In this document: one piece after another, positions 5,178-63,510 of the stretch
Position numbering within the stretch: the stretch's first letter is position 1
Layout: each line of letters starts with the position of its first letter
Virus record (IMG/VR): IMGVR_UViG_3300028394_002801
Location: 1-64,000 of that record
DNA: 64,000 nucleotides
Source: a virus
Reading direction: 5' to 3' (one strand)
Position numbers and translations under genes: made by a program
Notes under the pieces: model-generated
Database searches by the model: none
What the model was told of the DNA's origin: nothing
What the model saw: only the letters and a program-made list of their open reading frames with translations

Positions 5178-6070
5178 TATTCTATTATATTATCAAAATT
5201 TTTGCTTATGTCTATATCATCACCCCTATCTTCCCTAACCTCATATAACAACTCATTAAACTGATTTCTAACCTCAAATAGATTATATTGTCTATATATG
5301 TTGTTTGCTGGGTCATATAATGTATAAACCCCATCTTCAATAGATTTGGTCTGATTGCCAAATATCCCAATTGCTAATGTGGATATATCATGCTCGGCTA
5401 TCTCAATTTCCAATGTTGTGGGATTGAAATAGGTGTTGGTTATAATTATGTTTTGATTTGGCTGGCCAATAAAAGGTGTTGCATTTGTCTTGTTTGAAGG
5501 CGAACTACTTGGGCTTAAAGTCAAGAAAACCAAATTGGTGTTGTTATCAACATACCTATATCTAATTGATTTTTGGTTTGTATTCACCTCATTTGTTACA
5601 ATTGGCTCACAAAAGAAAGATGATGTTATTAACCTAAAGAAGTTTGGAACTTTCTGCCCATTATTCAAATATTCAACCCTATACCCAACCAATTCTTGGG
5701 GAACTTCAAACTTATTTCTAAAATCATCTGGAACATCATCCAGATTTATAACAATACCCTTTACATTTGGTAATGCACTCAAAACTCCACAATCATTTAT
5801 TTTTGTCCTTATTTGTGCTGGTCTTAAATATAATGTATAATAACCAAGTGCTGTAAATTCAGACGCTGGTAATGTCAAATTATATAACCCACCCAATATC
5901 TCATTAGGATGCTCACTATCAAAATAAGGTTTTAATATGGTTGTTGCATCCAATCTTTTTTGTGAAATCAAATCTGCCTGATCCCTTGTTGGTGCATATA
6001 CCATTACTATCTCCACATCTTCAGGGCTTACATCACTAGGTCTAACTGTTCCATATGTGCCAATTGCCAT
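5177..6070 (-). CDS. Unrecognised tail/baseplate protein (297 aa)
   Basis: I do not recognise this family. The 297-residue product has no signal peptide, transmembrane segment or catalytic motif. The first half is mixed alpha/beta and mentions no known fold; residues ~195-215 are Ser/Pro/Asn-rich, probably a linker. It sits between two structural genes, overlaps the next one by a single base (TAATG at 5175-5179), and is preceded by a TATTTATA box at 6087-6094. Those features imply that it starts a transcription unit encoding distal tail parts. A baseplate or fibre-attachment role is inferred from location only. Confidence 0.45.
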   Translation of the reverse strand: MAIGTYGTVRPSDVSPEDVEIVMVYAPTRDQADLISQKRLDATTILKPYFDSEHPNEILGGLYNLTLPASEFTALGYYTLYLRPAQIRTKINDCGVLSALPNVKGIVINLDDVPDDFRNKFEVPQELVGYRVEYLNNGQKVPNFFRLITSSFFCEPIVTNEVNTNQKSIRYRYVDNNTNLVFLTLSPSSSPSNKTNATPFIGQPNQNIIITNTYFNPTTLEIEIAEHDISTLAIGIFGNQTKSIEDGVYTLYDPANNIYRQYNLFEVRNQFNELLYEVREDRGDDIDISKNFDNIIE

Positions 6071-38912: not shown

Positions 38913-40721
38913 TTATTCATTAATTTTAAATACTAAAGGTGTAAGAACTGCATTATCTTTTAACCCTAAAGTGTAATTATCAATCTGATTCATTGGTTTA
39001 ACTGCACCAGATGAATCCATCATTTTATGAATTACATCTATTTTAAGATTGAAATCCATATTCTTAAAATTTGATAAACCATTATCTATTTTATTAGTCA
39101 AAATCTGATTATTATCACCATATTGTGGTCCACCCGTGCCACCAGCATTTGTTGGGACAATTTTACCCGTATTTGCATTTTGATTAAGCACCTTTGAACC
39201 AAAATCTTTCATATCATCAAGTGATGTTGCAATCCAACTATCACTCAATCCTTCTTTTTTAGCAGTAGTAAGTAACCGTGTCTTAATTTTATCTATGATA
39301 TCATCCATACTTGGTAACTTTGTTAGAGCTGTTTCCAACCCGCTTGTGAAACTTGTTGAGGTTTTAACCAAATCTGTTAAATCTGTATAGCTATTCTTTA
39401 TAAAAGACCTTATCTCTTTTTGATCTATTGATTCATATACGGTGCTAAGTGTTGGGTCAACAAGCCCCCCTCTTACTTTCTCTTGCATTTCAGCAATTCC
39501 GGGTGTACCAACAGCACCAAACAAAATCTTATATTTTATTGCTTGAACATCATTCTTTATAATATCTGTAATACTCATTGATTCTCTTGCAAGGTCTTCC
39601 ATCGTCTTTGGTTCTTCCTTAGATAATTCTTGCAATTTCTCCATTTGTTTATCTGTTAATTCTGAAACTTTCTGTGCAATTGATGCACCTGTCTTTTCAT
39701 CCTTAACATTAATTACATACTCACCCTTATCATTCAAATAAGATAAGTTAGCAATAAACATTTTTTGGTCTTCTGTAATATCAAACTTAAAATCTATCTC
39801 TGATGACCTTTCATTAAACTCCCTAAGTGCAATTGCCATTTTCTTCACCTTGTCTGCACCTAAACCTGTGGCATCCCCAAGTTCCTTGAACATACCCATT
39901 GCTGATGGATTTATTTCAATCCTTCCTGTTTCAGCATTCAATTCTGTGAACATCTCACCAGCCTTTGCAATACTCTTTATAAGTCCTTCTGGACCATTTA
40001 CTGAACTATTCATCAATGAAAAAGGATCCGCCAAATCACCCATAAAGACACCCAATCTTTGAAATGTAGAAGCAGTTTCAACAGCACCCTCAATATTAAA
40101 CACCTTATCAGCAAATGACTGAATGGAAGACATATCAACTTTAAGCATTGCAGCTGTTGCTGCCATCTTTGAAAACCCTAAAACCCCTTCCTTAAAGTTA
40201 AATCTATTTAATAAATCAGTATTATTAACAACCTCTTTCATTATGGTTTTTGCATCCATACCAACACTCTTAATGTAACTTATTGAATTTTCAACCTCCC
40301 CACCAACTTTAGCAATTGAAATACCCACATCTGAAAAGTTCTTGGTAAGGTCACTAGCACTTACATCCATTAAAGTAGTTAGGGCATATAATTTTTCATA
40401 AATTTCAGGTGAAAATACAACATTCCTTGAAAGTGCTTGACCTGTTTGCTCAACCATAGCAACAATATCACCAATATCACCTCCCAATCTTCTAACAAGT
40501 GGTGCTGTGTCTGCAATAACCCCTTTGAATTCATTAATCCTTGACCTACCAAGAAGAAAACTTTGACTTATTCTGGCAGATTCGGTATCCAATGTCACCA
40601 AAGCTCCAGTAAAGTTTGTCATCTCTTTTATTTGTTCTTTAAGAAAATCAGGATCAAGACCAAATAACTTCCCTTGAAGTTTACCTAAACCCCCAAATAT
40701 ACTATCATAAAATCCTGCCAT
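38913..40721 (-). CDS. Tail tape measure protein
   Basis: This 602-residue protein reads like a tape-measure core: long helices with regular Ala/Ser/Val spacing, TGALVTLDTESARISQSFLL near the start, LGGDIGDIVAMVEQTGQAL, SASDLTKNFSDVGISIAKVG, GFSKMAATAAMLKVDMSSIQ and FADKVFNIEGAVETASTFQR, the same kind of sequence as TP901-type tape measures. The length is close to T4 gp29 (590), so the tail may be about T4 length if the usual residue-to-length ratio holds (inference). No membrane helix is obvious. It follows the gp26-like gene and its terminator and is preceded by a TATTTATA box. Confidence 0.75.
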   Translation of the reverse strand: MAGFYDSIFGGLGKLQGKLFGLDPDFLKEQIKEMTNFTGALVTLDTESARISQSFLLGRSRINEFKGVIADTAPLVRRLGGDIGDIVAMVEQTGQALSRNVVFSPEIYEKLYALTTLMDVSASDLTKNFSDVGISIAKVGGEVENSISYIKSVGMDAKTIMKEVVNNTDLLNRFNFKEGVLGFSKMAATAAMLKVDMSSIQSFADKVFNIEGAVETASTFQRLGVFMGDLADPFSLMNSSVNGPEGLIKSIAKAGEMFTELNAETGRIEINPSAMGMFKELGDATGLGADKVKKMAIALREFNERSSEIDFKFDITEDQKMFIANLSYLNDKGEYVINVKDEKTGASIAQKVSELTDKQMEKLQELSKEEPKTMEDLARESMSITDIIKNDVQAIKYKILFGAVGTPGIAEMQEKVRGGLVDPTLSTVYESIDQKEIRSFIKNSYTDLTDLVKTSTSFTSGLETALTKLPSMDDIIDKIKTRLLTTAKKEGLSDSWIATSLDDMKDFGSKVLNQNANTGKIVPTNAGGTGGPQYGDNNQILTNKIDNGLSNFKNMDFNLKIDVIHKMMDSSGAVKPMNQIDNYTLGLKDNAVLTPLVFKINE

Positions 40722-40747: not shown

Positions 40748-40780
40748 AATAAGGGATGATTTTTTACATCATCCCTTATT
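40748..40780. terminator. Intrinsic terminator after gp26-like gene
   Basis: A perfect 13-bp stem, AATAAGGGATGAT (40748-40760) / ATCATCCCTTATT (40768-40780), has a 7-nt loop. The stop codon of the +1-frame extension (40769) lies inside it, so transcription ends just after that extension and not after the zero-frame stop at 40914. Confidence 0.75.
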
Positions 40781-40960
40781 ATTATTGTTATTAATATCCT
40801 CTGTCCATTTGTGTATCAAGAATTTCCGAAGAAATATTGGCATAGTTAAGAACTCAGAATATGAAACATGTAAAAGTTTTTTTAAATAATAAAATTCTGT
40901 TGATTGTGATAGCCTATAATCCGAAGAAAGGGCGAAAAAACTCCACCCCAAACCCAGCAT
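40769..40960 (-). CDS. +1-frame extension of gp26-like protein
   Basis: This open frame overlaps the last 47 nt of the gp26-like gene in the +1 (or -2) frame and continues to the terminator. From the overlap onward it encodes SSDYRLSQSTEFYYLKKLLH, then VSYSEFLTMPIFLRKFLIHK and WTED. This resembles the expected C-terminus of T4_baseplate-family (gp26-type) proteins, where a YSExxxMPxxxRxxxIxxL pattern is usual. The frame is closed by TGA just upstream of ATG 40960, so the two frames can only be joined within 40914-40960, which contains TTT TTT CGC. Its own ATG is probably incidental. It is either the product of programmed frameshifting, or the second half of one gene broken by a mutation or assembly indel. 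Confidence 0.6.
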   Translation of the reverse strand: MLGLGWSFFALSSDYRLSQSTEFYYLKKLLHVSYSEFLTMPIFLRKFLIHKWTEDINNNNNKG

Positions 40961-41663
40961 TCACTGTGGTCACATCTCCTGATGGGGTCTTGATATCTTT
41001 TTTCATATTAAGTTTAGGCTCATTTTCAGTTAAATATCTACGTATAAATTTTGAATCAGCAATTGGCATAGTCTCCACATGTTTAACAATATTAGTCTTA
41101 TCAATTTCACCATTAATTTCAACAATTTCCCTAGATAATCTTAATGTTGCCTTGGGTGCAATCCTTGATGGGGGGTAATTATCAATTATATCATTCACCT
41201 CCAATATTTCACCATATGTCAAAGGTTTTAATTTAACCACATCCCCACTCTTGGGAAGAGTAACTGTATATGTTCCATCCTCATTTGGCTTATTACCAGG
41301 CTCAATACTTAACTCACCCAAATCAACAATTGCCTTAAAAGACTTTCCGGTCTTGGGGTCAGTAACTGAAAGTTCAATATCTGAACCAAAAGAAGTATTT
41401 CTCAAAAAGATTAGAATTGCTTCTATATCACTTTCAATCATATCCTCTGGTCTTATATCATATTCATATATTTTGTTCTTCAAAAGTTGTAATGTGAAAT
41501 TCTTGCTATTACCTAATAATAGATTCTCATCAGCAGCTGTTAAATAACCAACTTTAACTGCTTTTTTCTTGTTTTTGTAAAAGATGCCACCAGAAGGTAG
41601 TTGGACAACATCATGGGGTAAATCAAAATTTGATTGACCATACTCTTTAGATTTATCTTCCAT
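40914..41663 (-). CDS. Tail assembly chaperone / gp26-like baseplate hub protein
   Basis: The 249-residue zero-frame product has features of the T4_baseplate family (gp26-like): VVQLPSGGIFYKNKKKAVKV at the start, LTAADENLLLGNS, a (D/E)DMIESDIEAILIFLRNTSF helix, a four-strand middle with VKLKPLTYGEI, and EFFRPFFGL at the end. It sits between tape measure and tail tube, the normal place for tail assembly chaperones. The frame stops at TAG 40914 just where family members usually continue; the continuation is in another frame (see 40769-40960). No upstream TATTTATA box; the gene is 41 nt from a terminator that isolates it from the tail tube gene. Confidence 0.6.
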   Translation of the reverse strand: MEDKSKEYGQSNFDLPHDVVQLPSGGIFYKNKKKAVKVGYLTAADENLLLGNSKNFTLQLLKNKIYEYDIRPEDMIESDIEAILIFLRNTSFGSDIELSVTDPKTGKSFKAIVDLGELSIEPGNKPNEDGTYTVTLPKSGDVVKLKPLTYGEILEVNDIIDNYPPSRIAPKATLRLSREIVEINGEIDKTNIVKHVETMPIADSKFIRRYLTENEPKLNMKKDIKTPSGDVTTVNAGFGVEFFRPFFGL

Positions 41664-41781: not shown

Positions 41782-42270
41782 TTAATAAACCAATATACAT
41801 CTATCTGGCTGAATAGTCACACTAATTCCTGCAATTGCATCAGAACTATAACTTAAATTACCAAAGTCAACATTTGTTAATAGGCAACCTTCAAGCAACC
41901 ATTTTTCAATTACAACTCCTGTTGGGTCAAGCATTTCTAATGTTAAATTTTGCTTATATCCAGCAGCATAACCCATTCTGCCTGTTACTGATTCAGCATG
42001 TAATCTAACCCACTCCATTAATGCTTGTGAAGCTGATGGTCCAATTGGATCCCTAAACTTAACACTAATAGCTTCCCACTTAAATCTTCCTGAAACATAT
42101 GTTGATGTATTCAAGAATTGTATCTCTGTTGAAGCTATGCTAATCTTAGGTCTTGATGCTGTTTCAACAAACCATTCATTTATACCCATACTTGATGGAA
42201 ACCTCAAAATGAACCTATTTTCCCTTTTTGGTTCGTATGGTAGGGGCATTTTCATTAATAAATCAGCCAT
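41782..42270 (-). CDS. Tail tube protein, T4 gp19-like
   Basis: This 162-residue protein forms the stacked hexameric rings of the inner tail tube. The signature is strong: RENRFILRFPSSMGINEWFV near the start, IEF-like strand TEIQFLNTSTYVSGRFKWE, then GPSASQALMEWVRLHAES and VTGRMGYAAGYKQNLTLEML, which closely follows the T4 gp19-type pattern PSASxxVxEWxRxHxESxTGRxGYAAxYK. T4 gp19 is 163 residues. Expression is probably high; the gene forms its own unit between a 200-bp A/T-rich leader and a terminator. Confidence 0.9.
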   Translation of the reverse strand: MADLLMKMPLPYEPKRENRFILRFPSSMGINEWFVETASRPKISIASTEIQFLNTSTYVSGRFKWEAISVKFRDPIGPSASQALMEWVRLHAESVTGRMGYAAGYKQNLTLEMLDPTGVVIEKWLLEGCLLTNVDFGNLSYSSDAIAGISVTIQPDRCILVY

Positions 42271-51780: not shown

Positions 51781-54700
51781 TTATAATCCATATTTCTCTT
51801 TATCTGCGTTATAGTTTTGTAATACTTCAGCATCACTTAATGTTGTGTTGTATAAACGAGTAATGCCAATTCTTCCAGCATAATATTGATTAAGTTCTCC
51901 ACCATTATAACTACCTATGTATAATGGATTAGTTGTATTTAATGTAGTTCCAAAAATATTTGCATTACTTCCCCAAAACGATCCATTTATATATGTTCTA
52001 ATTGTATTAAGTGGGTTGCTAAATACATAAACTAATTGATACCATGTATTAAGTGTTCCATTAAAGTTAGTACCTATAGCAACTCCAGTACTCCCGGGGC
52101 TAAATTGGGCATTATTTCCAGTAGCAGTATTTACCTTAATAGCATAACTCACATCAATATTTGCTCCTCCAGTACGGAATTTTCCAAGTATAACTTTTTG
52201 AGTACCACTACTTGTCTGATAAACCCATGCTTCCATAGTCCAACTTCCACTTCCTGGTTCTAATACTGCATTATCAGCAACACTAATTTGTGATGAAGTT
52301 CCATTATATTCAAAATATGGGTATGTATATGTAATAGCCGACATTTGACCAACTAATCCATTTGGTGATAAATCATTTATTACTGTACTATGTCTATTAT
52401 AAGAATCTAAATTACTTGGGTCAAAGTGTAATACAAGATTGGCTGTTACAGCAGTAATAGCATTAAAAGTAATATTATCACCAGCTTCAGTATTTGCAAA
52501 ATCTAAATCCTCCCAATATAAATAGTTACGATCAGGTACAGTAGGTGTAGGTGTTGGTGTTAGTGTTGGTGTTATTGTTTGAGTTGGTGTTATTGTTGGT
52601 GTTGGTGTTTCTGTTTGAGTTGGTGTTATAGTTTGAGTTGGTGTAATAGTGCTTGTAGGTGTTTCTGTTGGTGTTGGCGTTTCTGTTTGGGTTGGTGTAA
52701 TAGTGCTTGTAGGCGTTTCTGTTTGAGTTGGTGTAATAGTATTAGTTGGTGTTGGTGTTAGTGTTGGTGTTATTGTTTGAGTTGGTGTTATTGTTGGTGT
52801 TGGTGTTTCTGTTTGAGTTGGTGTTTCTGTTTGAGTTGGAGTAATAGTGCTTGTAGGTGTTTCTGTTGGTGTTGGAGTTTCTGTTTGTGTTGGTGTTGGC
52901 GTTTCTGTTTGAGTTGGTGTTTCTGTTGGTGTTGGAGTTTCTGTTTGGGTTGGTGTTATAGTTTGAGTTGGTGTTATAGTTTGAGTTGGTGTTTCTGTTT
53001 GAGTTGGAGTTTCTGTTTGGGTTGGTGTTATAGTTTGAGTTGGTGTTATAGTTTGAGTTGGTGTTTCTGTTGGTGTTGGTGTTTCTGTTGGTGTTGGTGT
53101 TTCTGTTTGGGTTGGTGTTTCTGTTTGGGTTGGTGTTATAGTTTGAGTTGGCGTTTCTGTTGGTGTTGGAGTTTCTGTTTGAGTTGGTGTAATAGTATTA
53201 GTTGGAGTTTCTGTTTGAGTTGGTGTAATAGTATTAGTTGGAGTTTCTGTTGGTGTTGGAGTTTCTGTTTGAGTTGGAGTTTCTGTTGGTGTTGGCGTTT
53301 CTGTTTGAGTTGGTGTAATAGTATTAGTTGGAGTTTCTGTTGGTGTTGGAGTTTCTGTTTGAGTTGGAGTTTCTGTTGGTGTTGGCGTTTCTGTTTGAGT
53401 TGGTGTAATAGTTTGAGTTGGCGTTTCTGTTTGAGTTGGAGTTTCTGTTTGAGTTGGAGTTTCTGTTGGCGTTGGTGTTTCTGTTGGTGTAATAGTGCTG
53501 GTTGGTGTTTCTGTGTTAGTAGGAGTTATAGTTTGAGTTGGTGTTTCTGTTGGTGTTGGCGTTTCTGTTTGAGTTGGTGTAATAGTTTGAGTTGGTGTAA
53601 TAGTTTGAGTTGGTGTTGGAGTTTCTGTTTGAGTTGGTGTAATAGTTTGAGTTGGAGTAATAGTGCTTGTAGGTGTTTCTGTTGGTGTTGGTGTTTCTGT
53701 TTGAGTTGGAGTTTCTGTTTGAGTTGGCGTAATAGTTTGAGTTGGTGTTTTGGTTGGTGTAATAGTGCTGGTTGGTGTAATAGTGCTGGTTGGTGTAATA
53801 GTTTGAGTTGGTGTTTCAGTTGGTGTTGGTGTTTCTGTTTGAGTTGGTGTTATTGTTGGTGTAATAGTGTTTGTAGGTGTTATTGTGTTAGTAGGTGTTA
53901 TTGTGTTAGTAGGTGTTTCTGTTGGTGTTGGCGTTTCTGTTTGGGTTGGAGTTTCTGTTTGAGTTGGAGTAATAGTTTGAGTTGGTGTAATAGTGTTGGT
54001 TGGCGTTTCTGTTGGTGTTGGAGTTTCTGTTTGAGTTGGAGTTTCTGTTGGTGTAATAGTGTTGGTTGGTGTAATAGTGTTGGTTGGTGTAATAGTGTTG
54101 GTAGGAGTAACTGTATTGGTTGGTGTTTCTGTTACTGTTGGTGTAATAGTTTGAGTTGGTGTTTCTGTTTGAGTTGGTGTAATACTGTTAGTAGGAGTTA
54201 TTGTTTGAGTTGGCGATACTGTTGGTGTAATAGTGTTGGTTGGTGTTATAGTGTTGGTTGGTGTGATTGTGTTGGTTGGTGTTTCTGTAACTGTTGGTGT
54301 GATTGTTTTTGTAGGTGTAATTGTCTTGGTAGGCGTAATTGTGTTAGTAGGTGTAATTGTATTGGTTGGTGTTTCTGTTACTGTTGGTGTAATAGTTGGT
54401 GTAATAGTTTTAGTTGGTGTAATAGTTGGTGTAATAGTTGGTGTAATTGACCTAGTTGGAGTAATAGTTGGTGTAATTGTTCTTGTTGGTGTAATAGTGC
54501 TAGTAGGAGTCACAGTTTGAGTTGGCGTTGGTGTTGGTGTTGGATCAACTCCTTCTGGAATAATTAAATCATAAGTTGTAAGGTAACTTGGAATATATAA
54601 ACTATATATTCCACTTATCCTATCTGTTTCAGGTCTTGGCTCAACATCAAAAGGTATAGTCTTCTCACCAAGATTATATGTCACACCATTTTGCAATAAT

Positions 54701-55563
54701 GATACAAATGCTTGCTCTCCATTTAAATTTACACTTGATATTCTTATTCTTATTCTATAAGTCAAATCATTTACTGGAATTGGGTCATTTAATTGTATTT
54801 TTGGTACTGAATTTACCAATTCTGTTTCAAAAACTTGACTAATTCTATTTATTGCAGGTTTAACCTCAAATTCTTTTTCATCAATCAAAAACCCAAGCAT
54901 TGTAAAATCATATGATTGAATATAAAATTTTCTGCTATCTGTGTTAATTTGAGATTCATCTTGAACATTTGTTAATAATATTGGTATATAATGTCCATTT
55001 ATGGTTGTATATGATTGTCTTGATGAGAACTTTTGCAATACTTTTGTATTAAAATTATTCAAATCTCTAATCCTATTTGTGATTATCTTAACACTAAAAT
55101 TAATGTCTATTGGTACTGGTTGTGGAATTGAGTAAATATCTGTGCCATTTCTTTGACCATCCCAAGTTGGCACACTTGCAAAATAAAATGGTTTTCTATC
55201 TGGTATATTATAAAGTGTTGCTGGATTTGATCCATATTTTGTATCATTCATCCTAACCAATGTAACAAATGGTGGGAGCGGATTATTATCTTCATCAATA
55301 AATGTCCATGTTTCTGTATATTGCGACCAGTTCTGTGTGCTAACTATTCTATCTAATGTTTGTATTATTTTTCCTTCTGATGTGATTTCCAAATCATTTT
55401 TAACAAAATCAAGCATCCCCCTATCCAAGTCATCATGTAATAATGATTTTGGCAAATAAGTCCCATCTTTAGTTATATTATCCAATAACTCCTGCCTTCT
55501 TTCAAAGAGGATTTTTTCATTAGCGATATCCAAATCTGTTTTTATATTTTTGGGTAATGGCAT
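51781..55563 (-). CDS. Long tail fibre: Thr-Pro stalk with LamG-like tip
   Basis: The protein has 1260 residues in three parts. Residues 1-~335: an N-terminal module ([51 protein letters not shown]) that looks like a virion-docking or baseplate-proximal domain. Residues ~340-1007: about 110 copies of a TPT(Q/P/N/S)T(E/I) hexapeptide, an extended stalk. Residues ~1030-1260: a concanavalin/LamG-like jelly roll, with [68 protein letters not shown] and INGSFWGSN, which often binds carbohydrates. A receptor-binding fibre is inferred. It overlaps no neighbour, but the Zn-ribbon gene ends 2 nt before its ATG. Confidence 0.7.
52541..54545. repeat. 2-kb tandem 18-nt repeat encoding TPTxT(E/I)
   Basis: An 18-nt-period tandem repeat (plus-strand units such as GTTGGTGTTTCTGTTTGA) is present for about 2 kb. 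Units fall into a few variants (TE, TI, NT, QT, ST), arranged in irregular higher-order blocks, as expected from repeated slippage or unequal recombination. A shorter version of the same repeat is in 8660-9202. Assembly across it may be unreliable. Confidence 0.9.
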
Positions 55564-59513: not shown

Positions 59514-59521
59514 CACTCATT
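59499..59521. terminator. Hairpin over convergent stop codons
   Basis: The hairpin is AATGAGTGC (59499-59507), a 5-nt loop, GCACTCATT (59513-59521). It contains the TAG of the 76-aa gene and part of the TAA of the last LRR-like gene. No T6 tract follows directly, so it could be a weak bidirectional terminator or an RNA-end stabiliser. Confidence 0.5.
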
Positions 59522-59990
59522 AAACCATTATGTTTTTATGAACTTTGCAATTTCTTTCCTCTAATTGTGCTTTTATTTCTTTTACTGTATAACGACCTAA
59601 TGGTGAGCCTTTCAACCAAATACTATTTTTAACTTCCATTCCAATAGGAAATTCTTTTATCCCAGTTCTTTGTATAGATAAGGCACCCCCAACATATAGG
59701 TTATCTGGTAAAGATTTTAAATCCCTACAATCATACAAAAGTAAATCATCACCAACTATAAGTTTTTCTGGTAATTCTGTTATTGTTGAAAAACTTAAAT
59801 CTAAGTAGTCAGTGACTTCTAAAATTTTTGGTAATTTAGTTATCAATTCACCATACAACTCTAATGCTCCCTTGTGAAAATACTTTTCAGGTATTGACTC
59901 AATGTCATGCAATAATATCCATTTTAATGATAATTTGTCTTCCTCTGATTTTAGGAAATCCATTATTCTTTTTATTGTTGTTTTATCCAT
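59520..59990 (-). CDS. LRR-like paralogue G (156 aa), most diverged
   Basis: This is the last member of the seven-gene LRR-like array. It keeps the N-cap (MDKTTIKRIMDFLKSEEDKL) and four degenerate repeats (KLPKILEV, ELPEKLIVGDDL, SLPDNLYVGGAL, EFPIGMEVKNSI), but has lost the shared C-cap MIxPGFIxGxIIR and ends in a helical ALEERNCKVHKN-like tail. The overlap with paralogue F is 8 nt. Divergence at the array edge suggests that it is old or decaying, or has specialised. No signal peptide, no membrane helix, so it is cytoplasmic in the host or packaged. Confidence 0.65.
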   Translation of the reverse strand: MDKTTIKRIMDFLKSEEDKLSLKWILLHDIESIPEKYFHKGALELYGELITKLPKILEVTDYLDLSFSTITELPEKLIVGDDLLLYDCRDLKSLPDNLYVGGALSIQRTGIKEFPIGMEVKNSIWLKGSPLGRYTVKEIKAQLEERNCKVHKNIMV

Positions 59991-60648
59991 TATCTTCTCT
60001 TATTATATCCCCATTTATATAACCATCTGGTTCTATCATACTTAATATGGCTTCATCTGAAATTTTTGCTAATGGGTTATTTTCAATAGATAAATCACCA
60101 TCAACTTGTAAGCCTTTTGGTAATGTGTTTATCATTGTGTGATCTAAATACAAATTCTCCCCAACTTCCAATCCTTCTGGTAATGAGGTTATTTTTGTAT
60201 TGTATAGACTTAAATAGCCACCAACTTTCAAATTGTTAGGTAGTGAAGTCAAGTCTGTACAATAACCCAAATCCAAACCACCATCAACATTTAAGTCTTT
60301 TGGTAATGATTTTATTTTTAAAGCGACTAATTTAAAATCACCACCAACATATAAACCTTTTGGGATTTGTTTTATACTTGTACCTTCCAAATCCAAATCA
60401 CCACCAACATATAAGTTATCTGGTAAATATTTTAAATGTTTACAACTTGATAAATTCAAATTATCCTCCACCTTTAATCCTTCTGGTATGTAAGTTATAT
60501 TTTCTTCAAATAAATCCAAATCACCTTTAATGTTTAATTCATCATCTGTAAATGTTTCATTATTCATTAATTTCCAAACAAATGGTTTATTTTTATTCTC
60601 TTTTTCTTCAAGAAAATCAAATATGTTTTTCAATGTGGTATTATCCAT
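59983..60648 (-). CDS. LRR-like paralogue F (221 aa)
   Basis: This paralogue has seven repeats of 20-21 residues between conserved caps: YIPEGLKVEDNL, YLPDNLYVGGDL, QIPKGLYVGGDF, SLPKDLNVDGGL, SLPNNLKVGGYL, SLPEGLEVGENL, TLPKGLQVDGDL. Each continues to an L-x-L-x-x-(T/C/N) strand, the usual LRR layout of a strand plus a short turn. The N-cap is MDNTTLKNIFDFLEEKENKN; the C-cap is MIEPDGYINGDIIR, with a short extension. The ATG is 2 nt downstream of the stop of paralogue E. Confidence 0.7.
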   Translation of the reverse strand: MDNTTLKNIFDFLEEKENKNKPFVWKLMNNETFTDDELNIKGDLDLFEENITYIPEGLKVEDNLNLSSCKHLKYLPDNLYVGGDLDLEGTSIKQIPKGLYVGGDFKLVALKIKSLPKDLNVDGGLDLGYCTDLTSLPNNLKVGGYLSLYNTKITSLPEGLEVGENLYLDHTMINTLPKGLQVDGDLSIENNPLAKISDEAILSMIEPDGYINGDIIREDNG

Positions 60649-60650
60649 TA

Positions 60651-61178
60651 TTATCTTATTATATTTCCTTTTATAAATCCTGGCTCAATCATTTTTCTTA
60701 ATTGATCATTTGAATATATTATTAATTCTGTTCCTCTTATATTCAAATCACCACCAACTTTCAATCCTTTTGATAATGATTTTAAATTTTTGCACATTAT
60801 TAAATATAAATTCCTGCCAACATATAATCCTTCTGGTAATGATGTTATTTTTGTATAATCTAAATGCAAATCCTCCCCAACTTTCAATCCTTCTGGTAAT
60901 GAGGTTATTTTTGAAAATGATAAATCCAAACTCCCCCCAACTTTCAATTCTTCTGGTAATGAGGCTATTTTTGAATACTCTAAAATCAAATTACCCCAAA
61001 CTTTTAAACCTTCTGGTAATGAAGTTATTTTTGAATTTCTTAAATATAAATTGCCTTCAAAATTCAAATCTTCTTTTGTTAATGGAATATTATTTGATGC
61101 TTTCCAAATAAAAGGTATTTTATGTTCTCCTTTTTCTTCAAGAAAATCTAATATGTTTTTCAATGTGGTATTATCCAT
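60651..61178 (-). CDS. LRR-like paralogue E (175 aa)
   Basis: Five repeats (SLPEGLKVWGNL, SLPEELKVGGSL, SLPEGLKVGEDL, SLPEGLYVGRNL, SLSKGLKVGGDL) lie between N-cap MDNTTLKNILDFLEEKGEHK and C-cap MIEPGFIKGNIIR. Its first repeats are almost the same as those of paralogue C (KVWGxLILEyS / KVWGDLILEDS), so blocks seem to have been exchanged between the two. Its start region and the preceding gene end repeat over ~75 nt nearly identically at the E/F and D/E junctions. Confidence 0.7.
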   Translation of the reverse strand: MDNTTLKNILDFLEEKGEHKIPFIWKASNNIPLTKEDLNFEGNLYLRNSKITSLPEGLKVWGNLILEYSKIASLPEELKVGGSLDLSFSKITSLPEGLKVGEDLHLDYTKITSLPEGLYVGRNLYLIMCKNLKSLSKGLKVGGDLNIRGTELIIYSNDQLRKMIEPGFIKGNIIR

Positions 61179-61180
61179 TA

Positions 61181-61600
61181 TTATCTTATTATATCTCCTT
61201 TTATAAATCCTGGATCAATCATTTCTCTTAATTGTTCATCTGAATATTTTGTTAAGGCTGTACCTTCAATCTGTAAGTCATCCCCAACTTCTAACCCTTT
61301 TGGTAATGAGGTCACACTTGAATGATTCAAACTCAAAATACCTCCAACTTTCAATCCTTCTGGTAAAGATGTTAAATGTTTACACATAAATAAATATAAA
61401 AACCCACCAACTTTCAATCCTTTTGGTAAGGATGTAATTTTTGTAAATGATAAATGCAAATTACCTTTTTGATTTAACTCTTCTTTTGTTAAGGGGTATC
61501 CAAATCTTAATTTCCAAACAAGATTATCTCTTTCTGAATGTTTTTTGTTTTCTTTTTCTTCAAGAAAATCTAATATTTTTTTTATTGTGTTATTATCCAT
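61181..61600 (-). CDS. LRR-like paralogue D (139 aa), shortest
   Basis: Only three repeats (SLPKGLKVGGFL, SLPEGLKVGGIL, SLPKGLEVGDDL) remain, yet both caps are complete (MDNNTIKKILDFLEEKENKK; MIDPGFIKGDIIR). The N-cap carries a seven-residue insertion (HSERDNL) like that of paralogue A (HKDKDTF), so caps as well as repeats have been shuffled. The TAA overlaps nothing; the ATG at 61600 shares one base with the stop of C (TAATG-like arrangement). Confidence 0.7.
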   Translation of the reverse strand: MDNNTIKKILDFLEEKENKKHSERDNLVWKLRFGYPLTKEELNQKGNLHLSFTKITSLPKGLKVGGFLYLFMCKHLTSLPEGLKVGGILSLNHSSVTSLPKGLEVGDDLQIEGTALTKYSDEQLREMIDPGFIKGDIIR

Positions 61601-62247
61601 TATAATCTTATTATACTACGTGTTATAAATCCTGGCTCAATCATTTTCATTAATTTCTCATCTGAATATCTTGTTAATCGAGTCTGACTTATTTGCAAAG
61701 TACCTCCAACTTTTAATCCTTTTGGTAATGTCTTTATGGTGCTGAAAGACAAATATATACTACCACCAACTTCCAATCCTTCTGGTAATGATTTTATTTT
61801 TGTACCAAACAAACTCAACTGACCTTTAACTTGTAATCCATTTGGTAATGATGTTATTTTGGTATTACTCAAATCCAAACTACCTTTAACTTTCAATCCT
61901 TCTGGTAATGCCTTTATGAGGCTGTCATTCAAAAATATACTACCACCAACTTCCAATCCTTTTGGTAATGATGTTATTTTGGTACCACTCAAATTCAAAC
62001 TACCTTTAACTTTCAATCCTTCTGGTAATGAGGCTATTTCTGAATCCTCTAAAATCAAATCACCCCAAACTTTTAATCCTTCTGGTAATGAGGTTATATT
62101 TGAATGCCTTAAATCCAAATTACCATTAACATTTAAGTCTTCTTCTGTTAATGGTATATTATTTGATACTTTCCACATAAAAGGCGTTCTATGTTCTCCT
62201 TTATCTTCAAGGAATTTAAATATGTTTTTTAGTGTTGTATTATCCAT
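61600..62247 (-). CDS. LRR-like paralogue C (215 aa)
   Basis: Seven repeats (KVWGDL, KVKGSL, EVGGSI, KVKGSL, QVKGQL, EVGGSI, KVGGTL endings) sit between N-cap MDNTTLKNIFKFLEDKGEHR and C-cap MIEPGFITRSIIRL. Inside the gene the KVKGSL-EVGGSI pair recurs, which indicates internal duplication of a two-repeat block of about 120 nt. All repeats are the 20-residue type with T-K-I at the turn, giving a regular solenoid. Confidence 0.7.
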   Translation of the reverse strand: MDNTTLKNIFKFLEDKGEHRTPFMWKVSNNIPLTEEDLNVNGNLDLRHSNITSLPEGLKVWGDLILEDSEIASLPEGLKVKGSLNLSGTKITSLPKGLEVGGSIFLNDSLIKALPEGLKVKGSLDLSNTKITSLPNGLQVKGQLSLFGTKIKSLPEGLEVGGSIYLSFSTIKTLPKGLKVGGTLQISQTRLTRYSDEKLMKMIEPGFITRSIIRL

Positions 62248-62248
62248 A

Positions 62249-63031
62249 CTAATATTTTCTCATTATATCTCCGTTTATAAATCCTGGCTTAATCATTTCT
62301 CTTATTTCATCATCTGAATAATCCTCAATAGAAGACATAGATATATATAAATCCCCACCAACTTTTAATCCTTTTGGTAATGATGTTAAACTTTCGCAAT
62401 CCATTAAATTCAACCGACCCTTAACTTCCAATCCTTCTGGTAATGAGGTTATATTTGTTTTTGACAAAGTAAAATTAAGCCCAACCTTCAAACCTTGTGG
62501 TAATGATTGTATATTCTTACAATTGAGTAAAGATAAATGACCTCCAACTTTCAATCCTTCTGGTAATGAGGTTAATTTTTGACAAGCAGATAAATCTAAA
62601 TTGCCACCAATTTTTAATCCTTTTGGTAATGATTTTATTTGAGAAGCAAACAAATTCAAATCACCTGTAATACTAAATCCTTCTGGTAATGAGGTTATTT
62701 TTGAATTTGATAAATCCAATTCGCCACTAACTTTCAACCCTTTGGGTAATGAGGTTATTTCAGTTTTTCTTAAACTCAACCAACCCCTAACATTTAACCC
62801 TTCTGGTAGTGATTTTATTTTTGTATTAGACAAAGCCAAGTCGCCATTAATTTTCAATAATCCTTCTGGTAATGACATAATATTTGTATGTGATAAGTCA
62901 AAAGTACCTTTACCATTAAAATCATCAACTGTTAATGGTATATTATTTAATACTTTCCATTTAATTGGTATTTTATGTTCTCCTTTATCTTCAATGAATT
63001 TAAATATGTTTTTTAGTGTGTTATTATCCAT
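62249..63031 (-). CDS. LRR-like paralogue B (260 aa), longest
   Basis: Nine repeats are present, mixing the 20-residue type (SNTKIKSL) and the 21-residue type with a Cys at the turn (SACQKLTSL, LNCKNIQSL, MDCESLTSL). Cys positions in LRR-type repeats line the same face of the solenoid. The N-cap is MDNNTLKNIFKFIEDKGEHK and the C-cap is MIKPGFINGDIMRKY. It follows paralogue A with a one-base overlap and precedes C by one base, so all seven genes probably share one message. Confidence 0.72.
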   Translation of the reverse strand: MDNNTLKNIFKFIEDKGEHKIPIKWKVLNNIPLTVDDFNGKGTFDLSHTNIMSLPEGLLKINGDLALSNTKIKSLPEGLNVRGWLSLRKTEITSLPKGLKVSGELDLSNSKITSLPEGFSITGDLNLFASQIKSLPKGLKIGGNLDLSACQKLTSLPEGLKVGGHLSLLNCKNIQSLPQGLKVGLNFTLSKTNITSLPEGLEVKGRLNLMDCESLTSLPKGLKVGGDLYISMSSIEDYSDDEIREMIKPGFINGDIMRKY

Positions 63032-63510
63032 TATCTATATATTTTTCCTTTTATAAATCCAGGTGCAATCATATTTCTAATTTCACTTATTTTATATTTT
63101 TGTAATGCCGCACTAGGACGTAATTCACCTCCAAGTTCCAAACCTTTTGGTAATAAGGATATTTCTGTATTTCTTAAATCCAAATTACCCCCAACTTTCA
63201 ATCCTTCTGGTAAAGAAGTTAATTTTTCAGCCCAATTTAAATCCAAATTACCACCAACTTCTAATCCTTTTGGGAGGGTGGATAAATGTTCAGTATGACT
63301 TAAATTTAAATCACCTTTAACTTTTAAACCTTCTGGTAGTGATACTATATCTGAAAGTTTTAAATTAAAATCACCCTCAACTTCTAAATCTTCTTTTGTT
63401 AATTGGTAGCCAAGTCTATATTTCCAAATAAAGGTATCTTTATCTTTATGTTTTTTGTTTTCTTCCTTTTCAAGAAAATCAAGTATTTTTATTAGTGTTG
63501 ATTTATCCAT
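63031..63510 (-). CDS. LRR-like paralogue A (159 aa), first of array
   Basis: This is the promoter-proximal member. N-cap MDKSTLIKILDFLEKEENKK, with the same kind of insertion as D (HKDKDTF), four repeats (SLPEGLKVKGDL, TLPKGLEVGGNL, SLPEGLKVGGNL, LLPKGLELGGEL) and C-cap MIAPGFIKGKIYR. The ATG at 63510 is preceded by an exact TATTTATA box (63528-63535) in a 34-bp divergent gap shared with the superoxide dismutase gene. No known LRR effector motif, ubiquitin-ligase domain or signal peptide accompanies the repeats. Confidence 0.72.
   Translation of the reverse strand: MDKSTLIKILDFLEKEENKKHKDKDTFIWKYRLGYQLTKEDLEVEGDFNLKLSDIVSLPEGLKVKGDLNLSHTEHLSTLPKGLEVGGNLDLNWAEKLTSLPEGLKVGGNLDLRNTEISLLPKGLELGGELRPSAALQKYKISEIRNMIAPGFIKGKIYR

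What the first reader, a model, noticed from the sequence alone, without database searches (positions are those of the whole stretch)
40769..41663. gp26-like tail chaperone split between two frames: +1/-2 frameshift or lesion
The 249-aa frame ends at TAG 40914, but conserved-looking C-terminal sequence of the family (YSEFLTMPIFLRKF) continues in the +1 frame to a stop inside the terminator. The frames can join only within 40914-40960, which contains GAG TTT TTT CGC; a Phe tRNA could slip from UUU to UUC by +1. Programmed frameshifts in tail-assembly genes are established (lambda G/GT -1; -2 in Mu-like phages). The terminator sits just after the second frame, which supports its translation.
Basis: partly seen in the sequence, partly recalled or inferred. 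Interest (0 to 1): 0.6.

Follow-up and report, generated by a model that had tools for sequence, protein, structure and literature searches.

The report
+1 frameshift in phage tail chaperone
A large family of uncultured tailed phages almost certainly makes a short and a long version of a tail-building helper protein by having the ribosome slip forward one base at the sequence UUU_CGN, the same motif that influenza virus uses for PA-X; it is a real, conserved gene-expression signal, not a sequencing error or a broken gene.

Summary
The 249-aa gene (T4 gp26 family, PF12322) ends at TAG 40914-40916, and a second coding frame (+1) continues to TGA 40769. At least 109 distinct relatives in public viral contigs show the same split; no uninterrupted version was found. 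All have UUU_CG(C/T/G) at the junction, and frame 0 stops 5 or 7 codons after the slip codon. Substitution patterns switch frame at this site: pN/pS of the +1 reading is 1.45 upstream and 0.34 downstream. Members with a +1-frame TAG 8 nt before the slip codon, or with UUC before it, rule out a GGG_G slip, upstream re-initiation, homopolymer slippage and (for the UUC members) -2. In 20,339 window codons TTT_CGN occurs once, here; CGC is among the rarest sense codons (5). The extension is a confident three-helix domain resembling T4 gp51. Best explanation: programmed +1 frameshifting makes a TAC-N/TAC-NC tail assembly chaperone pair, as in lambda G/GT. Frameshifted chaperones are known, and gp26/gp51 were proposed as the T4-like ones. 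What looks new is the direction and the PA-X-like UUU_CGN site, conserved across a large phage lineage and seen in named Streptococcus and Streptomyces phages. Nothing here was shown experimentally.

The parts
40914..41663 (-). Frame-0 gene, 249 aa: short form, T4 gp26-like (TAC-N); TAG stop 40916-40914
   Evidence: PF12322 E 3.5e-9; phrog_150 E 2.6e-12; AlphaFold model pLDDT 82, matches gp26-like viral proteins
40935..40937 (-). Slip codon UUU (P site), codon 243; +1 re-pairing to UUC (40936-40934)
   Evidence: TTT in 58 of 58 distinct junctions and all 30
40932..40934 (-). A-site codon CGC, among the rarest sense codons of the window
   Evidence: CGC 5 of 20,339 codons; TTT_CGN only here; CGT/CGC/CGG in relatives
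40946..40949 (-). GGGG 8 nt 5' of the slip codon: possible SD-like stimulator (unproven)
   Evidence: The codon four before the slip codon is GGG in 55 of 58 junctions although Gly codons vary elsewhere
40914..40931 (-). Dual-coded overlap: frame 0 PFFGL*, +1 LSSDYR
   Evidence: positions free in one frame are fixed by the other
40772..40933 (-). +1-frame extension, 54 aa, gp51-like three-helix domain (TAC-C); full fused product 297 aa
   Evidence: fused reading; pN/pS; pLDDT 90.6; hhalign to gp51-like set
40748..40780 (-). 13-bp hairpin holding the +1 stop codon; terminator- or processing-like
41782..42270 (-). Tail tube protein upstream (context)
   Evidence: phrog_4542 E 5.5e-29
38913..40721 (-). 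602-aa gene downstream in the tape-measure position (context, inferred)
   Evidence: No family match; in LIS04, SP-15 and immuto the tape measure gene is annotated just downstream of the gp26-like gene

Best explanation
It is a T4 gp26/gp51-type tail assembly chaperone gene expressed by programmed +1 ribosomal frameshifting. Most ribosomes read frame 0 and make a 249-aa short form (TAC-N). Some pause with tRNA-Phe on UUU in the P site while the rare CGC codon waits in the A site; the tRNA re-pairs one base downstream on UUC (a better match to its GAA anticodon), and translation continues at GCC in the +1 frame to make a 297-aa long form (TAC-NC) ending in a gp51-like helical domain. By analogy with lambda G/GT, many short and few long copies coat the tape measure protein and recruit tail tube subunits. 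Shown here: conserved split, frame switch at UUU_CGN, family of the first part, gene order. Inferred: that shifting occurs, its efficiency, and the chaperone function.
For: Every relative covering the junction keeps the split. Slip codon TTT 58/58, next codon CGT 24, CGC 23, CGG 11, although the preceding Phe codon varies TTT/TTC. pN/pS: last 36 nt upstream 0.27 in frame 0 and 1.45 in +1; extension 0.34 in +1. Six junctions carry a +1 TAG 8 nt before the slip codon (also L247, L270), confining the shift to about 26 nt where UUU_C is the only good +1 re-pairing. TTT_CGN occurs once in 20,339 codons and CGC five times. The extension folds with pLDDT 90.6 and aligns with gp51-like C-terminal domains. 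Position after the tail tube gene and before the probable tape measure gene. UUU_CGU is a proven +1 site in influenza PA-X, with preference for CGN in related viruses (PMC3498833).
Against: No expression, reporter or mass-spectrometric data. The host and its tRNA pool are unknown. TTT_CGN rarity in the window is weak by itself (expected 2.5, seen 1). The 602-aa downstream protein has no family match, so 'tape measure' rests on position. Direct match of the extension to the gp51 family phrog_634 is weak (E 0.073). The sequence pairs used for pN/pS are not independent.
Confidence: 0.9

Rival explanations
1. Sequencing or assembly error, or a recent inactivating indel: the true or ancestral gene is one frame.
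For: Homopolymer T6 at 40940-40935 in the window.
Against: The same split is in independent contigs from many samples at 100-46% identity, with frame-0 stops in several forms (TAG, TAA, TGA) and relatives lacking the homopolymer (TTCTTTC). The extension is under purifying selection.
Confidence: 0.01
2. -2 frameshifting, as in phage Mu, at the U6 run; the long product would have one extra Phe.
For: Same downstream frame; TTT TTT in most members would allow UUU to re-pair on UUU two bases back.
Against: Members with TTC TTT CGC (the L003 group, L150, L279) would need Phe-tRNA to pair with UCU; UUU followed by C is invariant, which +1 needs and -2 does not.
Confidence: 0.04
3. The extension is a separate gp51 gene translated from its own start or by re-initiation, as T4-type genes 26 and 51 are annotated.
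For: In Sinorhizobium phiM12 gp51 is annotated separately with an ATG. In the window the +1 frame has an ATG at 40960.
Against: 7 of 58 junctions have no ATG, GTG or TTG in the +1 frame before the frame-0 stop and 44 have no ATG. The +1 frame upstream of the slip codon is not conserved as protein (pN/pS 1.45), and the conserved +1 reading starts right after UUU_C.
Confidence: 0.04
4. Slip at GGG_G (40949-40946) instead of UUU_C.
For: GGG codon conserved in 55 of 58; +1 re-pairing would be perfect.
Against: Several members have GGG GTA GAR, a +1 TAG directly after that site. GGG_G occurs more than 100 times in frame in other window genes. +1 residues between the two sites are not conserved (W/L/S/R).
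Confidence: 0.01

Closest known systems
Lambda G/GT and related tail assembly chaperones of long-tailed phages
   Same: Gene after the tail tube gene and before the tape measure position; short form plus low-level frameshifted long form; -1, -2 and +1 all reported across tailed phages (PMC5009743)
   Different: Here the shift is +1 at UUU_CGN, not -1 at a heptamer; the protein family is gp26/gp51, not lambda G/T
T4-like gp26/gp51 chaperones (Vladimirov, Gautam and Davidson 2022, Virology 566:9; not held, known here from title, citations and memory)
   Same: Frame-0 protein is PF12322/gp26; extension resembles gp51
   Different: T4 itself is said (memory) to use separate genes, and poly-T -1 sites are cited for T4-like phages (PMC12846349); here one +1 site joins the two parts. 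I could not check whether the 2022 paper reports +1 cases
Influenza A PA-X +1 site UCC_UUU_CGU and 'PA-X-like' sites of fijiviruses, chronic bee paralysis virus and amalgamaviruses (PMC3498833)
   Same: P-site UUU, A-site CGN, +1 direction, no obvious 3' stimulatory structure
   Different: Bacterial phage; E-site codon is UUY not UCC; function is tail assembly. The 2012 paper proposed the class for eukaryotes
Listeria phage PSA/A118/A500 and SPP1 +1 frameshifts in tail shaft or capsid genes (PMC5009743, PMC3498833)
   Same: +1 frameshifting in phage structural genes
   Different: Site in the Listeria phages is Pro CCC_U; product is a tail shaft or capsid variant, not a chaperone

Membership tests
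Frameshifted tail assembly chaperone (G/GT type) | Lies between tail tube and tape measure genes | tested here: inconclusive
   Tail tube upstream met; downstream 602-aa gene unmatched, though relatives have annotated tape measure genes there
[quoted passage not shown]
   109 distinct junctions
Frameshifted tail assembly chaperone (G/GT type) | Both products made, in a defined ratio, absent from the virion | not testable with these tools
   Needs proteomics
T4 gp26/gp51 | N-part belongs to PF12322 / gp26 | tested here: met
   E 3.5e-9, above cut-off; fold match to gp26-like viral proteins including Aeromonas phage 25 Gp26
T4 gp26/gp51 | Extension homologous to gp51 | tested here: inconclusive
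   hhalign 97.7-97.8% to a small set led by phiM12 gp51, which itself matches phrog_634 at 8e-22; direct phrog_634 match only 0.073 in 1 of 12
PA-X-like +1 site (UUU_CGN) | UUU in P site followed by CGN, +1 frame downstream | tested here: met
   58 of 58, 30 of 30
PA-X-like +1 site (UUU_CGN) | Rare A-site codon | tested here: met
   CGN 61 of 20,339 codons, CGC 5; rarity in the host not known
PA-X-like +1 site (UUU_CGN) | UCC in the E site (influenza form) | tested here: not met
   E-site codon is TTT or TTC
PA-X-like +1 site (UUU_CGN) | Measured +1 shift at the site | not testable with these tools
   Needs reporter or mass spectrometry

The most novel reading that the evidence does not exclude
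UUU_CGN is a general +1 recoding signal in bacteria, used without a strong 3' structure by a large group of contractile-tailed phages for their gp26/gp51 tail chaperones, independently of its use in eukaryotic RNA viruses; the wider gp26 family switches between +1 (UUU_N) and -1 (U_UUU_UUU) shifting among lineages, so the 'long-tailed phages except T4' exception applies only to a small T4 subgroup.
Probability: 0.5. Interest if true: 0.7.

Novelty: new variant of a known kind. Interest (0 to 1): 0.58.

Why it matters
It gives a large comparative data set (over a hundred distinct junctions) for a +1 shift site in bacteria, where general +1 motifs are poorly defined, and shows the same UUU_CGN solution in phages as in influenza A virus. 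It also means the long form of this chaperone is probably missing or mis-annotated (as a separate small hypothetical gene) in named phages such as BRock, SP-15, LIS04, GXN1 and immuto, and makes the gp26/gp51 question testable with a simple reporter.

Tried and rejected
Lesion or assembly error, -2 shift, GGG_G slip, re-initiation and homopolymer transcriptional slippage were tested against relatives and rejected (see rivals; slippage is excluded by members with only TTCTTTC). A genome-contig scan for host-integrated relatives found none. PDB fold searches gave no significant match for either part. A PHROG search with the fused protein extended the phrog_150 match only slightly, to position 236 of 282. 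No strong RNA structure was found downstream of the slip site (median MFE -8.3 kcal/mol for 70 nt; not compared with shuffles). No tRNA genes in the window. The Vladimirov 2022 paper is not held.

Full report
OBSERVATION. On the minus strand the 249-aa frame runs 41663 to TAG 40914 and the +1 frame is open from 40960 to TGA 40769. Around the junction the codons are GGG TTT GGG GTG GAG TTT TTT CGC CCT TTC TTC GGA TTA TAG. Reading UUU_C as a +1 slip gives ...GFGVEFF|ALSSDYRLSQSTEFYYLKKLLHVSYSEFLTMPIFLRKFLIHKWTEDINNNNNKG, 297 aa in all.

WHAT THE GENE IS. The frame-0 protein matches Pfam T4_baseplate (gp26 family, E 3.5e-9, over the curated cut-off) and PHROG 150. Its AlphaFold model (pLDDT 82) matches predicted gp26-like viral proteins, for example the Bacillus phage SP-15 baseplate hub subunit (TM 0.80) and Aeromonas phage 25 Gp26. 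Upstream lie a tail tube gene and, further up, a tail sheath gene; downstream lies a 602-aa gene in the place where relatives have an annotated tape measure gene.

CONSERVATION OF THE SPLIT. A search of viral contigs with the window protein gave 19 loci at 100-68% identity, all with the same frame-0 stop and the same +1 extension. A search keyed on N-terminal peptides, and thus blind to the junction, gave 52 loci down to 48% identity; every one that covers the junction keeps TTY TTT CG(C/T) CCT TTC TTC. A wider one hit its limit at 600 stretches with 584 relatives; the 80 kept show 30 distinct junctions, all with TTT_CG(C/T). A DNA motif scan gave 119 or more stretches; of those listed all but one (L146) are C-termini of this gene followed by a homologous +1 extension. 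In total 109 distinct junction sequences were collected. These sets overlap, and the motif scan is biased towards the motif; the two peptide-keyed searches are not.

WHERE THE SHIFT IS. In 58 distinct junctions the slip codon is TTT in all, the next codon is CGT (24), CGC (23) or CGG (11), while the Phe codon just before varies (TTT 54, TTC 4). The third base of CGN sets Ala, Val or Gly as the first +1 residue, so it varies as the +1 protein allows. The frame-0 stop codon begins 15 or 21 nt after the start of the slip codon. Six junctions have a TAG in the +1 frame 8 nt before the slip codon, as do L247 and L270, which rules out any upstream shift or start in those phages. Pairwise pN/pS gives 0.27 for frame 0 and 1.45 for the +1 frame in the 36 nt before the slip, and 0.34 for the +1 frame in the extension against 1.04 and 1.33 for the other two. 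The coding frame therefore switches at UUU_CGN. Both frames are maintained in the short overlap, which argues that both products are used.

WHY UUU_CGN. tRNA-Phe (anticodon GAA) pairs better with UUC than with UUU, so a +1 move is favourable, and CGN codons are rare here: 61 of 20,339, CGC 5. TTT_CGN occurs nowhere else in the window's genes (expected 2.5, so weak evidence alone). The influenza A PA-X site UCC_UUU_CGU was mapped to +1 by mass spectrometry, and related viral sites prefer CGN (PMC3498833). A GGG codon four codons before the slip codon is kept in 55 of 58 junctions; it may be an internal SD-like stimulator, but its spacing differs from that of prfB (from memory) and it is unexplained.

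THE EXTENSION. It is 47-66 aa long, is predicted as three helices with pLDDT 90.6, and aligns by profile with C-terminal pieces from more distant phages, including annotated gp51 of Sinorhizobium phage phiM12 (hhalign 97.7-97.8%). That gp51 matches phrog_634, baseplate hub assembly catalyst, and the C-terminal end of phrog_150. The direct family match of our extension is weak, so gp51 homology is likely rather than proven.

WIDER FAMILY. In distant named phages the gp51-like piece also lies in another frame right after the gp26-like gene: +1 with UUU_CGU in Streptococcus phage GXN1, UUU_CGC in Streptomyces phage BRock, UUU_CAC in Bacillus SP-15, UUU_CUU in Flavobacterium phage immuto, UUU_UGG in Microcystis phage Mel-JY01 and UUU_AGU in Listeria LIS04; and -1 after U_UUU_UUU in XacN1, RAS14 and phiM12. 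None is annotated as joined in the annotated records read. These single cases are leads, not tests.

KNOWN OR NEW. A review states that lambda-type G/GT frameshifting is found in long-tailed phages 'except T4', and that tailed phages use -1, -2 or +1 (PMC5009743). [quoted passage not shown] I know its content only from the title, citations and memory (memory: genes 26 and 51, with frameshifting in some T4-like groups). A 2025 paper cites poly-T -1 sites for T4-like phages (PMC12846349). I found no report of a UUU_CGN +1 site in phages in the held library. I therefore rate it a new variant of a known kind, with the caveat that the 2022 paper could not be read.

Noticed in passing
window, 19-28 nt upstream of ORFs starting at 6070, 18122, 38890, 40721, 43291, 46090, 49333, 56247, 63510 (minus strand): The octamer TATTTATA (reverse complement of the T4 late promoter TATAAATA) recurs at a near-fixed distance before 9 of 42 start codons, mostly those with an intergenic gap; the opposite orientation occurs once in the same windows. 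Possibly a phage promoter or leader element.
   Followed up: partly
L194, L195, L199 (XacN1, RAS14, phiM12): gp26-like genes ending at T TTT TTT with the gp51-like piece open in the -1 frame, annotated as separate genes; likely -1 frameshifting.
   Followed up: partly
L192, L196, L197, L280, L281, L282: Named phages LIS04, GXN1, BRock, immuto, SP-15 and Mel-JY01 have an unannotated or separately annotated +1-frame gp51-like extension after the gp26-like gene.
   Followed up: partly
window 40748-40780 and the equivalent place in relatives: A hairpin of changing sequence, often holding the +1 stop codon in its 5' arm, followed by (C/G)TATTTAT, recurs in many relatives but not all.
   Followed up: partly
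window 59520-63510: Seven tandem minus-strand ORFs of leucine-rich-repeat-like proteins (LTSLPEGLKVGG...) that look like a recent paralogue array.
   Followed up: no
window 51781-55563: Very long (TPTxT)n repeat in a 1260-aa virion-like protein.
   Followed up: no
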